Below, piece by piece: positions 17,163-53,599 of a stretch of DNA of 54,267 bases. The stretch comes from a virus. A model generated the notes under the pieces. It saw nothing but the letters and a program-made list of their open reading frames with translations, did no database searches and was not told the DNA's origin. The stretch's first letter is position 1; each line of letters opens with the position of its first letter. The DNA is taken from positions 117,500 to 171,766 of the IMG/VR virus record IMGVR_UViG_3300042691_036629, one strand, 5' to 3'. Made by a program: the position numbers and the translations under genes.

Positions 17163-17242
17163 TGGTCAAGATAGGATTCGAACCTATGACGATGCGACCA
17201 TTAAGGGTGAGATACCACTTTCTCATTACGCATTACTTGACC
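17163..17242 (-). tRNA. tRNA-like gene, rearranged centre
   Basis: 80 nt. Perfect acceptor stem (GGTCAAG/CTTGACC, discriminator A) and T arm (ATAGG-TTCGAAT-CCTAT). The centre is abnormal. A D-like arm (TGAG-AAAGTGGTAT-CTCA) is displaced eight bases 3' of its usual place. It lies between ATGCG and CGCAT, which can pair as an anticodon-type stem. The only anticodon-like loop, ACC-CTTAAT-GGT, has three pairs. Isotype undetermined (UAA is possible). No CCA encoded. Confidence 0.6.
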
Positions 17243-17296
17243 AACCTACTTCCTTTCTTCGTCGATGCTCGTTGTTTAGTAGTAACCAATCAGAAG

Positions 17297-17377
17297 TAGT
17301 CAGGACAGGATTCGAACCTGTATCATAACGCTATAAGGAACTTAATCCACGATGACTTCCCATTAGCCCACCTGACT
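17297..17377 (-). tRNA. tRNA-like gene, class-II length, weak anticodon arm
   Basis: 81 nt. Good acceptor (AGTCAGG/CCTGACT, A73), D arm (GGCT-AATGGGA-AGTC) and T arm (ACAGG-TTCGAAT-CCTGT). The remaining 32 nt fit a class-II layout, but the anticodon stem is poor; GGA-TTAAGT-TCC would give UAA (Leu). An alternative ATCGT/ATGAT stem encloses 22 nt. Promoter TATATTTG at 17411-17418 serves this and the next tRNA. Confidence 0.6.
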
Positions 17378-47570: not shown

Positions 47571-47640
47571 TTCCAGTGATTTTTTTATTCTAGTTAGCTT
47601 ATCGCCTCCAACTCTTTCATATAATTTATTTTATTTTTAG

Positions 47641-47714
47641 TGGAGAATACCGGAATCGAACCGGTCACCTCTTGTCTGCCAGACAAGCGCTCTAGCCAAA
47701 TGAGCTAATTCCCC
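47641..47714 (-). tRNA. tRNA-Ala(GGC)
   Basis: 74 nt, complete cloverleaf. Acceptor GGGGAAT/ATTCTCC contains the G3:U70 pair that defines alanine tRNAs; D arm GCTC/GAGC; anticodon arm CTTGT-CTGGCAG-ACAAG reading GGC; T arm ACCGG-TTCGATT-CCGGT. A73. No CCA encoded. Confidence 0.95.
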
Positions 47715-47736
47715 AATTAAGTAGAGAAATTTAGAT

Positions 47737-47845
47737 GAGTGTGTTTTTACTATGCTATCCATTACACCACCACCGCATTATTTTTATTTGAGCGGTGACC
47801 AGGACTCGAACCTGGATCAGTCGTTTGAAATACGAAGTAACACTC
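47737..47845 (-). tRNA. Putative circularly permuted tRNA (3' half before 5' half)
   Basis: Read 5'-3' on the minus strand. An anticodon arm (TCGT-ATTTCAA-ACGA, anticodon UUC), a T arm (CCAGG-TTCGAGT-CCTGG) and the acceptor 3' strand TCACCGC come first (47836-47792). A 15-nt AT linker follows. Then come the matching acceptor 5' strand GCGGTGG (47776-47770) and a D arm (GTGT-AATGGATA-GCAT, to 47752). All seven acceptor positions pair, with one G:U. The outer ends pair too: GAGTGTTACT (47845-47836) with AGTAA...CACTC (47751-47737), leaving a 5-nt bulge. Isotype by anticodon is Glu, but the acceptor and U73 look glycine-like. Two unrelated tRNA fragments are the alternative. Confidence 0.6.
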
Positions 47846-47864
47846 GTTCTTTACTACTACTTTG

Positions 47865-47936
47865 AGCGAGAAATGAGATTCGAACTCACGACACTCTGGT
47901 TGGTAACCAGATACTCTACCACTGAGCTATTCTCGC
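47865..47936 (-). tRNA. tRNA-Gly with anticodon ACC
   Basis: 72 nt, complete cloverleaf. GCGAGAA/TTCTCGC with U73 and the G1:C72, C2:G71 pairs expected of glycine tRNA; D arm GCTC...GAGT; anticodon arm TCTGG-TTACCAA-CCAGA; T arm GTGAG-TTCGAAT-CTCAT. The loop places ACC at 34-36. A34 is rare in bacteria outside tRNA-Arg, where it becomes inosine. Confidence 0.85.
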
Positions 47937-48229: not shown

Positions 48230-48317
48230 AGCAGGTAGTGGGATTCGAACCCACGATGTGAACCTTATCTGACCGGATTGGAAATCCGGAGCCATCGACC
48301 AACTAGGCGACACCTGC
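48230..48317 (-). tRNA. tRNA-Gly(UCC)-like with long variable region
   Basis: 88 nt. Acceptor GCAGGTG/TACCTGC with U73 (glycine-like); D arm GCC/GGC with a class-II type loop; anticodon arm CCGGA-TTTCCAA-TCCGG reading UCC; about 18 nt of variable region (TCAGATAAGGTTCACATC) where glycine tRNAs have 4-5; T arm GTGGG-TTCGAAT-CCCAC. Its first 15 nt overlap the end of the HNH gene. Confidence 0.8.
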
Positions 48318-48854
48318 ATGTATTTCTCTATGACAATTAGAACAAACTAAAATACATTTATCTAATTCATTTTTTATTCTATCCCAAGAAAGATTATATT
48401 TCCCGGAGATTGTAAAATCTTTTTCACTCGGATTGGTATGATGAAAATCAAGTGCTTGAATACATTTATTATACCCACATAAAATACATTCACCACCTTT
48501 ATACTCAACCGATTTTATTTTTAACATTGTTCTTCTTTTCAATCTATAAATTTTAGAATTTTTTTTAGCTGCATCACTATCAACCCTCTTAATATCAGCA
48601 TGTTTAATTACTGTTGTTTCTGAAATTCCAAAATATATAGATGTTTCTTTTTTTGTGTGTGTTTTATAATATTCTTTTAATTGTAAAATTTCATCTTCAT
48701 TTAACTCTTTATATTTTTTTAATCCAATATCACTTAGTCCATTTTCCTTACACCATTTTGATACTATTGATTTTGAACATTTTAATATTTCACTTATTTT
48801 ATTTAAACTGAATCCATTTTTTCTCAATTCAATTATTTTACTTTCCAAACTCAT
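48303..48854 (-). CDS. HNH homing endonuclease
   Basis: 183 aa. Two helix-turn-helix segments (FSLNKISEILKCSKSIVSKW; KKETSIYFGISETTVIKHAD) precede a zinc-HNH domain: CILCGYNKC, LDFHHTNPSEKDF, CILVCSNCHREIH. The HH and the terminal CxxCHREIH are the metal and catalytic elements. The last five codons and stop lie inside the downstream tRNA-Gly(UCC) gene, so the endonuclease gene is fused to a tRNA 5' end. TTAATATATA at 48876-48885. Confidence 0.9.
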   Translation of the reverse strand: MSLESKIIELRKNGFSLNKISEILKCSKSIVSKWCKENGLSDIGLKKYKELNEDEILQLKEYYKTHTKKETSIYFGISETTVIKHADIKRVDSDAAKKNSKIYRLKRRTMLKIKSVEYKGGECILCGYNKCIQALDFHHTNPSEKDFTISGKYNLSWDRIKNELDKCILVCSNCHREIHAGVA

Positions 48855-49487: not shown

Positions 49488-50114
49488 TTATTTTTTTAAT
49501 CTTCCCAATTCCCATCCTTCAGGGATTATCTCATTTTTTTTTATTTTTTTATTCTCATACCCATTTGTTATCCAACAAGTTCCAAATTGAGAATTATTCT
49601 CACCTTTTTGAATTTCACTCAACTTTTCACTTATCTTAATTTTAGATTCTTGTGAATGTTTTTTACCACTGAAACCTTTACTATTTAAATTATTTTTATT
49701 ACCTTTTAGTTTATTTGATATTTTTTTTATCCAATTATCTTTAAAATCAATATCTTTCCTTTTTTCATTTAGTCTATCATTACCAGCTTTAGAACATTTC
49801 ATTTGATGTTCCTCATCTTTAAATCCACCACTACCACCAACTCTCAAATTCATACAAAGAGTTTCATTTATTAGATTTGATGTAATAAGATCAATTTCCG
49901 CTTTTATCAGTTCATCTCTATTATCATAAAATTCCAATATTTCAATTTTAAAATTCTCTTTACCATACTTTCTTATTGAGTATCTTAATTTTTTACCAGA
50001 TCCCAAATATCCATCGTTTAAATTATTTGTACTGTGCATACCATAATAATAATTATGATTTATCAAATTTGTCGTTTTATACAAATAGTGATAACATTTA
50101 ATTTTTCTTGGCAT
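49488..50114 (-). CDS. GIY-YIG homing endonuclease
   Basis: 208 aa. CYHYLYKTTNLINHNYYYGM carries the GIY-YIG signature as YLY...YYG; RYSIRKYGKENFKIEILEFY and KAEIDLITSNLIN supply the catalytic helix and Glu. The C-terminal half has NUMOD3-like repeats (GFSGKKHSQESKIKISEKLS) that bind DNA. Located between tRNA genes, a typical site for mobile endonucleases. TTAATATATA at 50135-50144. Confidence 0.88.
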   Translation of the reverse strand: MPRKIKCYHYLYKTTNLINHNYYYGMHSTNNLNDGYLGSGKKLRYSIRKYGKENFKIEILEFYDNRDELIKAEIDLITSNLINETLCMNLRVGGSGGFKDEEHQMKCSKAGNDRLNEKRKDIDFKDNWIKKISNKLKGNKNNLNSKGFSGKKHSQESKIKISEKLSEIQKGENNSQFGTCWITNGYENKKIKKNEIIPEGWELGRLKK

Positions 50115-52804: not shown

Positions 52805-53599
52805 ATGAAATATACAATTAATGATACTAAATTTTTCCCAAAAACAAATGGGGTATATAAAATATCTTTCACCAACTCAATTAATGGAAAAGTTTATATA
52901 GGGAGTGCTTCTGGTGGATATGGATTTTATACTAGATGGAAATCACATATTTCAAGTTTAAAAAATAAAAAATCAGGAAATACAATATTGCAACTAGCAA
53001 CAAATAAATATGATTTAAGTAATATTATATTTGAAGTTTTGGAATTTTGTGAAAAGGATGATTGTCTAAATAGAGAACAGTTCTATATAGATAAATATAA
53101 CTCTTATAATTATGGGTATAATGGAAGACCAAAATCATCAAATAATGGTTGCTTACCAATGAAAAAAGTAACAAAAGATAAAATATCAGATAAATGGAAA
53201 ATAAAACGAGATTTTTATGTGGGTGAAGTTAGAAGATTGTATATTAATGAGAATAAAAATACTAGGGAAATATCAGATATTTTGAATATAAGTAGAACTT
53301 TTATTCAAAAAATATTCAAAGAGAATGAAATAGAACCTAGAAAAAATTTTGGTCTCCAAAAGGTAAGATTTTACCAATATAAAGACGGAATTTTAATAAA
53401 AGAATGGGATTCGATAAATGATTGTGTGATTAGAAATTCATTCAATTCTAATGGTATTAGAATTGTTTTAAATGGTCAATGTTTTTTTTACAAAAACTTT
53501 CATTTTAATTATTTAAAACTAGATGTAGATGAGATAAATAAATTAGAAAATGAATTTAAAATTAAATCAAAATGTAGAAAATATTATTATATTAACTAG
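52805..53599 (+). CDS. GIY-YIG homing endonuclease with HTH tail
   Basis: 264 aa. NGVYKISFTNSINGKVYIGS (GVY...YIG), GFYTRWKSHISSLKNKKSGN with the conserved Arg region, FEVLEFCEKDDCLNREQFYI with the Glu. Then a helix-turn-helix (NTREISDILNISRTFIQKIF) and a NUMOD1-like strand region (YQYKDGILIKEWDSINDCVI) that bind the target DNA. A free-standing mobile endonuclease; its neighbours show no split gene. Confidence 0.9.
   Translation: MKYTINDTKFFPKTNGVYKISFTNSINGKVYIGSASGGYGFYTRWKSHISSLKNKKSGNTILQLATNKYDLSNIIFEVLEFCEKDDCLNREQFYIDKYNSYNYGYNGRPKSSNNGCLPMKKVTKDKISDKWKIKRDFYVGEVRRLYINENKNTREISDILNISRTFIQKIFKENEIEPRKNFGLQKVRFYQYKDGILIKEWDSINDCVIRNSFNSNGIRIVLNGQCFFYKNFHFNYLKLDVDEINKLENEFKIKSKCRKYYYIN

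What the first reader, a model, noticed from the sequence alone, without database searches (positions are those of the whole stretch)
47737..47845. Candidate circularly permuted tRNA gene in a phage
The 3' half of a tRNA (anticodon arm, T arm, acceptor 3' strand TCACCGC) precedes its 5' half (acceptor GCGGTGG plus D arm), joined by a 15-nt AT linker. The two acceptor strands are fully complementary. In addition, the outer ends form a separate 10-bp helix with a 5-nt bulge, as if to hold the two ends together for joining. Permuted tRNAs are established in some red algae and archaea, processed by a bulge-helix-bulge endonuclease that bacteria lack. A phage RNA ligase/kinase pair of the T4 type could seal the ends (inference).
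Basis: partly seen in the sequence, partly recalled or inferred. Interest (0 to 1): 0.9.

Follow-up and report, generated by a model that had tools for sequence, protein, structure and literature searches.

The report
Phage Y RNA mimicking a tRNA
What looked like a tRNA gene with its halves swapped is most likely a phage Y RNA, a small RNA that grips a ring-shaped Ro60-like protein with one end and imitates a tRNA with the other, here with an unusually complete tRNA that still carries an anticodon loop.

Summary
In detail: on the minus strand a tRNA's 3' half precedes its 5' half, with a 15-nt linker, a 7/7 paired acceptor and a helix joining the outer ends. It is under selection: in four related sequences 142 of 142 pairing cells hold and 11 of 36 pairs change on both sides. 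The feature is larger than reported: 47719-47862 (144 nt), with a second outer helix.

The interpretation, a tRNA joined by ligase, is not the best one. The same stem plus permuted tRNA occurs in many phages, usually with a Ro60 (TROVE) gene: 13 of 14 large motif-bearing contigs, 1 of 15 controls. Huge phage LR745206, with the closest named relative, encodes Ro60. Rfam's YrlA (bacterial Y RNA) has the same permuted order. RNA ligases show no association. Two close relatives have a 6-nt "anticodon" loop.

So this is a Y RNA-like RNA: Ro60-binding handle plus tRNA mimic. Unlike Rfam's YrlA consensus it keeps an anticodon arm. Side finds: tRNA-order isomers with the handle inserted in the anticodon stem, and a second handle family paired with DUF2828 proteins, including Felix O1-like phages.

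The parts
47719..47862 (-). whole Y RNA-like RNA, 144 nt
   Evidence: fold z -2.50; covariation; lies between tRNA-Gly and tRNA-Ala
47857..47862 (-). P1 5' strand AAGUAG (outer handle helix)
   Evidence: 2 of 6 pairs change on both sides
47719..47724 (-). P1 3' strand CUACUU
47846..47856 (-). internal loop, 5' side (UAGUAAAGAAC), conserved UAGYRA-type
47725..47736 (-). internal loop, 3' side (AUCUAAAUUUCU), conserved UUYU-type
47840..47845 (-). P2 5' strand GAGUGU
   Evidence: 2 of 6 pairs change on both sides
47737..47742 (-). P2 3' strand ACACUC
47836..47839 (-). inner helix 5' strand UACU, part of the conserved GUUACUUCG
   Evidence: never varies, so no covariation support
47748..47751 (-). 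inner helix 3' strand AGUA
47743..47747 (-). 5-nt bulge AAAAC
47820..47835 (-). anticodon arm UCGU AUUUCAA ACGA(C), loop reads UUC
   Evidence: loop is 6 nt in L312 and L377
47799..47815 (-). T arm CCAGG UUCGAGU CCUGG
   Evidence: 2 of 5 pairs change on both sides
47792..47798 (-). acceptor 3' strand UCACCGC
   Evidence: 4 of 7 acceptor pairs change on both sides
47777..47791 (-). 15-nt AU-rich linker between the acceptor strands
47770..47776 (-). acceptor 5' strand GCGGUGG
47752..47769 (-). UG plus D arm GUGU..GCAU
   Evidence: one-sided changes only
47864..47936 (-). flanking tRNA-Gly upstream of the RNA
47640..47714 (-). flanking tRNA-Ala downstream of the RNA

Best explanation
It is a phage Y RNA-like RNA. 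Shown by sequence and covariation: the RNA's two ends pair into a handle (P1, internal loop, P2) and the middle folds as a tRNA whose order is T arm, acceptor, D arm, with an anticodon arm at the junction. Inferred: the RNA is cut out of the tRNA operon when the flanking tRNA-Gly and tRNA-Ala are trimmed; the handle is held by a phage Ro60 (TROVE plus vWA ring protein), and the tRNA-like end recruits or imitates tRNA for tRNA-binding enzymes or an effector such as PNPase, as described for bacterial YrlA. No splicing or ligation is needed.
For: Same stem motif plus permuted tRNA in many phages, with P1 and P2 sequences that differ but pair (72 records: own strands P2 13.1 and P1 14.0 against 9.0 and 9.2 for swapped strands). 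TROVE in 13 of 14 large motif-bearing contigs, 0 of 11 records of the other motif family, 1 of 15 controls below cut-off (Fisher 2.9e-6 against controls). Of 67 loci with only the window's motif class, 40 hold a Ro60-like ORF (member of the merged Ro60/DUF2828 profile, not a strong DUF2828 match) in the fetched flank, median 326 nt from the RNA, and none a DUF2828 ORF. LR745206, which has the same RNA at the same place, encodes a 483-aa TROVE/vWA protein. Annotated phages VanLee and Sixama have a 'Ro-like RNA binding protein' near such elements (Sixama's element, of the related GUUAUC type, by eye). Rfam YrlA RF02553 aligns over its full length to Kikimora's element (38.8 bits, below its cut-off of 69) and its consensus has the same order T arm, acceptor, short loop, acceptor, D arm; best match in phages 47 bits, VanLee. 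Literature passages: PMC8394870, PMC7824862.
Against: No TROVE gene in the window's own 171,766-nt record G000 or in contigs G002 and G003, though these are fragments. In LR745206 Ro60 lies about 127 kb from the RNA. The window's element itself is not matched by RF02553 even at E 10; no record of 18 reaches the Rfam cut-off, and at the loose limit used there (E 1) RF02553 also rings in 13 of 14 ordinary control genomes and in phages of the other family, so weak RF02553 matches say little beyond 'tRNA parts in this order'. Weasels2 carries such an RNA but no TROVE match, and contig G017 likewise. The anticodon arm is not in the Rfam YrlA consensus. No binding or expression was measured.
Confidence: 0.86

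Rival explanations
1. A true permuted tRNA gene: the handle is an intron-like element that is cut at the edges of the anticodon stem, the ends are ligated (phage or host ligase), and RNase P and 3' processing open the circle at the linker, giving tRNA-Glu(UUC).
For: Joining the halves restores five standard pairs in the anticodon stem with U33 for the window (GUCGU AUUUCAA ACGAC) and for 62 of 103 records with UACUUC next to the anticodon arm (several junctions were tried per record and no null was run, so this is biased upwards; LR745206 was left out there by a filter slip but restores it too). tRNA-order isomers with the handle inserted exist. LR745206 has five PF09414 and one PF09511 ligase genes.
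Against: Ligase families no commoner than in controls: 8 of 14 motif contigs, 8 of 15 controls. Strong Ro60 association. Close relatives have a 6-nt loop and a different anticodon. No bulge-helix-bulge. The unjoined RNA forms the same pairs as a three-way junction.
Confidence: 0.07
2. The Y RNA's anticodon arm is the working part: the RNA is a decoy that occupies host anticodon nucleases, with Ro60 stabilising it.
For: Anticodon loops of many identities are kept; PMC7790460 (passages) suggests that YrlA's tRNA-like domain may competitively inhibit an anticodon nuclease; huge phages carry several RNA ligases.
Against: Loop length is not kept in two of four close relatives; no nuclease was tied to it here.
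Confidence: 0.2
3. A remnant of tRNA-array rearrangement (tandem tRNA-Glu copies with outer halves lost), without function.
For: It lies in a tRNA array with homing-endonuclease-type genes.
Against: 142 of 142 pairing cells kept with 11 pairs changed on both sides; same place and structure in LR745206 at 78% identity.
Confidence: 0.01

Closest known systems
YrlA class of bacterial Y RNAs (Rfam RF02553; PDB 6CU1 as cited in PMC8394870)
   Same: Ends pair into a handle with an internal loop; tRNA-like domain in the permuted order T arm, acceptor 3' strand, loop, acceptor 5' strand, D arm; companion Ro60 gene in related phages.
   Different: Anticodon arm kept; linker 15 nt against 3 in the Rfam consensus; RF02553 does not detect the window's copy; sits in a tRNA array, and in LR745206 far from Ro60.
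Permuted tRNA genes of red algae and archaea (features recalled)
   Same: 3' half before 5' half, end helix.
   Different: No bulge-helix-bulge, Ro60-associated handle, anticodon loop not conserved; joining not shown.
Animal Y RNAs (RF00019)
   Same: 5'/3' end stem that Ro60 binds; one stretch of L119 scores 26.5 bits, below the cut-off of 38.
   Different: No tRNA-like domain in animal Y RNAs (recalled).

Membership tests
Y RNA, YrlA type | 5' and 3' ends pair into a long stem | tested here: met
   P1 and P2
Y RNA, YrlA type | tRNA-like domain with T arm, acceptor and D arm in permuted order | tested here: met
   Rfam consensus
Y RNA, YrlA type | Ro60 (TROVE) gene in the same genome | tested here: inconclusive
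   absent from G000, G002, G003 fragments, present in LR745206 with the same RNA
Y RNA, YrlA type | score above RF02553 gathering (a detection threshold, not a biological definition) | tested here: not met
   window not matched at E 10; 0 of 18 records over cut-off; so not filed as a member of RF02553
Y RNA, YrlA type | anticodon arm replaced by the handle, as in the Rfam consensus | tested here: not met
   window has stem UCGU/ACGA and a 7-nt loop
Y RNA, YrlA type | binds Ro60; modified by DusA and TruB | not testable with these tools
   needs protein and RNA
Permuted tRNA gene | 3' half precedes 5' half | tested here: met
Permuted tRNA gene | bulge-helix-bulge at the ends to be joined (definition recalled) | tested here: not met
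   6 bp, one 5-nt bulge, 4 bp
Permuted tRNA gene | conserved decoding anticodon loop | tested here: not met
   UUC, GCA and two 6-nt loops among four relatives
Permuted tRNA gene | joined RNA made in cells | not testable with these tools
   no RNA data

The most novel reading that the evidence does not exclude
Phages carry whole tRNAs on a protein handle, in two circular permutations (ends at the handle, or ends at the acceptor with the handle inserted in the anticodon stem) and in two separate systems: one with Ro60/TROVE, one unrecognised with DUF2828 ring-like proteins and a different handle (UAAAAAG / UUCAGCAA), the latter in Felix O1-like laboratory phages. These full tRNAs may be decoys for anticodon nucleases, or may be released as working tRNAs.
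Probability: 0.55. Interest if true: 0.7.

Novelty: new variant of a known kind. Interest (0 to 1): 0.55.

Why it matters
It turns an apparent permuted tRNA into a testable Ro60/Y RNA system in phages. It suggests that unannotated gaps in phage tRNA arrays can hold Y RNAs that tRNA finders and Rfam's cut-offs miss, shows Y RNA-like RNAs with an anticodon arm, and points to a second handle and protein pair (DUF2828) present in a phage that grows on E. coli K-12, where function can be tested.

Tried and rejected
Permuted tRNA with ligation was my working view up; I dropped it as the leading view when phage annotation led to the TROVE test. Before that I read the handle as a mini-intron family (notes); the tRNA-order loci that suggested introns are now read as handle insertions, which RNA data must decide. 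RNA ligases as partner: no association. L314 was a chance pattern hit inside tail genes. L021 has no tRNA call. The AlphaFold2 model of the DUF2828 protein was poor (pLDDT 43.7) and was not used. Iterated profiles of DUF2828 and TROVE proteins converged on one merged set of 131 ORFs, so the hhalign score is circular; I rely on PHROG 850 for their kinship. BLAST with the Rfam YrlA consensus found nothing in E. coli or phage records. In 392 genomes of one bacterial phylum TROVE was found in 4, 3 over cut-off, with no permuted tRNA by eye in the five loci fetched; one (L421/L425) has a GUUACUUC before the TROVE gene (not followed).

For some searches I took, from 40 large contigs with a motif-pattern match, the 24 (14 F1, 10 F2) in which the strict scan found the RNA, and dropped 16 without it; of 19 control candidates I used the 15 with no such RNA in the fetched piece and dropped 4. 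In one search, 41 of 103 records fell below the limit. In one search, 42 of 72 own strands beat at least 95% of foreign strands, 63 of 84. In one search, 27 of 67 F1 loci and 69 of 90 F2 loci have no ring-protein ORF in the fetched piece, and 207 other loci hold 30 Ro60-like and 14 DUF2828 ORFs without an RNA passing the scan. Of 98 unique tRNA-order candidates 57 have no motif.

Full report
What is there. On the minus strand the window reads, from 47862 to 47719, a 144-nt RNA lying between tRNA-Gly (47864-47936) and tRNA-Ala (47640-47714). Its middle is a tRNA in permuted order: anticodon arm, T arm, acceptor 3' strand, 15-nt linker, acceptor 5' strand, D arm. The window is part of a 171,766-nt virus record, probably a fragment.

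It is real and selected. Folding energy is 2.5 sd below shuffles. The huge phage LR745206 (634,780 nt) has the same RNA between the same two tRNA kinds at 78% identity, and two further contigs (L312, L377, nearly alike) carry close copies. In an alignment of the four, all 142 scorable cells of the 36-pair structure are standard pairs, 11 pairs show two-sided changes, and the covariation score is 0.440 against 0.205 +/- 0.035 in shuffles and at most 0.143 for slid partners. Acceptor (4), T stem (2), anticodon stem (1), P1 (2) and P2 (2) have the two-sided changes; the inner helix never varies and the D stem changes on one side only. In contigs L007 and L009 the stretch printed is identical.

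It is common. A scan for T arm, acceptor strand, linker, complementary acceptor strand and D arm outside ARAGORN tRNAs gave 242 hits (210 unique) in 381 loci (3.37 Mb), with 9 for shuffled acceptors; by the motif next to the anticodon arm the 210 fall into 95 with CAGCAA or CUGCAA (family F2), 73 with UACUUC (F1, the window's), 8 with UUAUC (F3) and 34 with none. Many of these loci were fetched with such motifs, so the counts are not frequencies. The F1 handle is: [P2'] - about 8-12 nt ending UUYU(C) - [P1'] ... [P1] - UAGYRA or similar - [P2] - GUUACUUC. For 72 F1 records the RNA's own two strands pair better than strands swapped between records (P2 13.1 against 9.0, P1 14.0 against 9.2).

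What it is. Annotated phages with F1 or F3 elements pointed to the partner: VanLee and Sixama have a 'Ro-like RNA binding protein' near the RNA and Kikimora an 'RNA-binding protein' (elements and, for Sixama by eye, 130). TROVE (Ro60) was then found in 13 of 14 large F1 contigs, in LR745206, VanLee, Phabba and Kikimora and in the L012 contig, in 0 of 10 F2 contigs and not in phage ekra, and in 1 of 15 controls below cut-off; it was not found in Weasels2, in F1 contig G017, or in the window's own fragments G000, G002, G003. In the fetched pieces 40 of 67 F1 loci hold a Ro60-like ORF, median 326 nt from the RNA, and none a DUF2828 ORF. Rfam's YrlA model aligns over its full length to Kikimora's RNA below its cut-off, and its consensus has the same permuted order. 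That score is weak evidence by itself: at E 1 the model matches 17 of 18 phage records, F2 phages among them, but also 13 of 14 ordinary genomes, never over its cut-off, and it does not match the window's copy. Bacterial YrlA RNAs are described as 90-150 nt with an end stem that tethers the Ro60 orthologue and a tRNA-like domain (PMC8394870, passages); a small subset of jumbo phages has a TROVE protein (PMC7824862, passages), and phages with YrlA are mentioned in PMC7765460 (passages). The founding paper (Chen 2014, RNA) is not held; that it reports Y RNAs in more than 250 bacterial and phage species is recalled from its abstract.

How it differs. The Rfam YrlA consensus runs from the tRNA-like domain straight into the handle. 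The window RNA keeps an anticodon stem-loop. Joining the two halves at one junction restores five standard pairs with U33 in 62 of 103 records with UACUUC (51 permuted, 11 tRNA-order; several junctions were tried per record, no null was run, and a filter slip left LR745206 out). In the window the loop reads UUC, in LR745206 GCA, and in L312 and L377 it has 6 nt, so decoding does not seem to be kept. Of 15 tRNA-order F1 candidates 11 restore the stem, among them L263, L293, L319, L338, L347 and L373, and carry the handle as a hairpin in the anticodon stem, P1 often being short (P1 partly by eye): the same plan with the ends at the acceptor.

Against splicing. RNA ligase families (PF09414, PF09511, PF01139 taken together) occur in 8 of 14 F1 contigs, 8 of 11 F2 records and 8 of 15 controls (Fisher 1.0 and 0.43). 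The ekra record, a complete genome, has none of the three. The end structure is not a bulge-helix-bulge. The unjoined RNA already makes every pair as a three-way junction. Joining remains possible and needs RNA data.

A second system. F2 RNAs share the permuted tRNA but have another handle, (U)AAAAAG - helix - CUGUU ... UUAG - helix - UUCAGCAA. 84 unique F2 records pair better with their own strands (16.1 against 9.3). They accompany proteins with PF11443 (DUF2828) and PF25043 (DUF7788): PF11443 in 7 of 10 large F2 contigs plus ekra and Enterococcus phage H1, 0 of 14 F1 contigs, 1 of 15 controls. These proteins fall in the same PHROG, 850 'RNA-binding protein', as the phage Ro60 proteins. The L058 locus, an F2 example, matches 607 phage records, most named Salmonella or Escherichia phages; the query includes neighbouring tRNAs, so only the 240 records covered over at least 80% are likely to hold the RNA. 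ekra, a Felixounavirus listed with host E. coli K-12 MG1655, holds it. None of the 15 listed papers of 225 mentions DUF2828. Searches for permuted or intron-bearing phage tRNAs (listings only, some cut) listed no report of these RNAs.

Verdict. A Y RNA-like RNA with a YrlA-type plan, confidence 0.86; a variant because it keeps an anticodon arm. Expression, Ro60 binding and function are inferred.

Noticed in passing
L058, L077, L155 (Escherichia phage ekra, record 76.5-79.4 kb): Felixounavirus phages carry an unannotated F2 permuted tRNA near a DUF2828/DUF7788 protein; the L058 locus matches 607 phage records, 240 over at least 80% of the query.
   Followed up: partly
L155 8661-8723 and 9140-9218; L046; L100: F2 handles enclosing only an anticodon-arm-like hairpin, with no T or D arm seen (by eye).
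   Followed up: no
L263, L293, L319, L329, L336, L338, L347, L361, L373: tRNAs in normal order with a Ro60-type handle inserted as a hairpin in the anticodon stem.
   Followed up: partly
L411 from 12979 (LR745206): An F1 handle hairpin without a tRNA-like domain, possibly a second, tRNA-less Y RNA of the same huge phage.
   Followed up: no
LR745206 73 kb, 271 kb, 346 kb, 347 kb, 465 kb, 470 kb: Five PF09414 and one PF09511 RNA ligase genes in one phage.
   Followed up: no
window 48303-48854, 49488-50114, 52805-53599: Likely homing-endonuclease-type genes in and near the tRNA array: an HTH protein, HNH by eye, and two GIY-YIG-type proteins, one of them below the Pfam cut-off for GIY-YIG.
   Followed up: no
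window 17163-17377: Two odd tRNA-like genes, one read by ARAGORN with a four-letter anticodon taag.
   Followed up: no
L384 9566-9911: Brevundimonas phage Kikimora carries a permuted tmRNA (RF04321, 57.7 bits, cut-off 47).
   Followed up: no
L380 2721-2827: The only hit of one F2 pattern in bacterial genome contigs, in a Bacilli MAG contig that also has a DUF2828 gene; may be a phage contig.
   Followed up: partly
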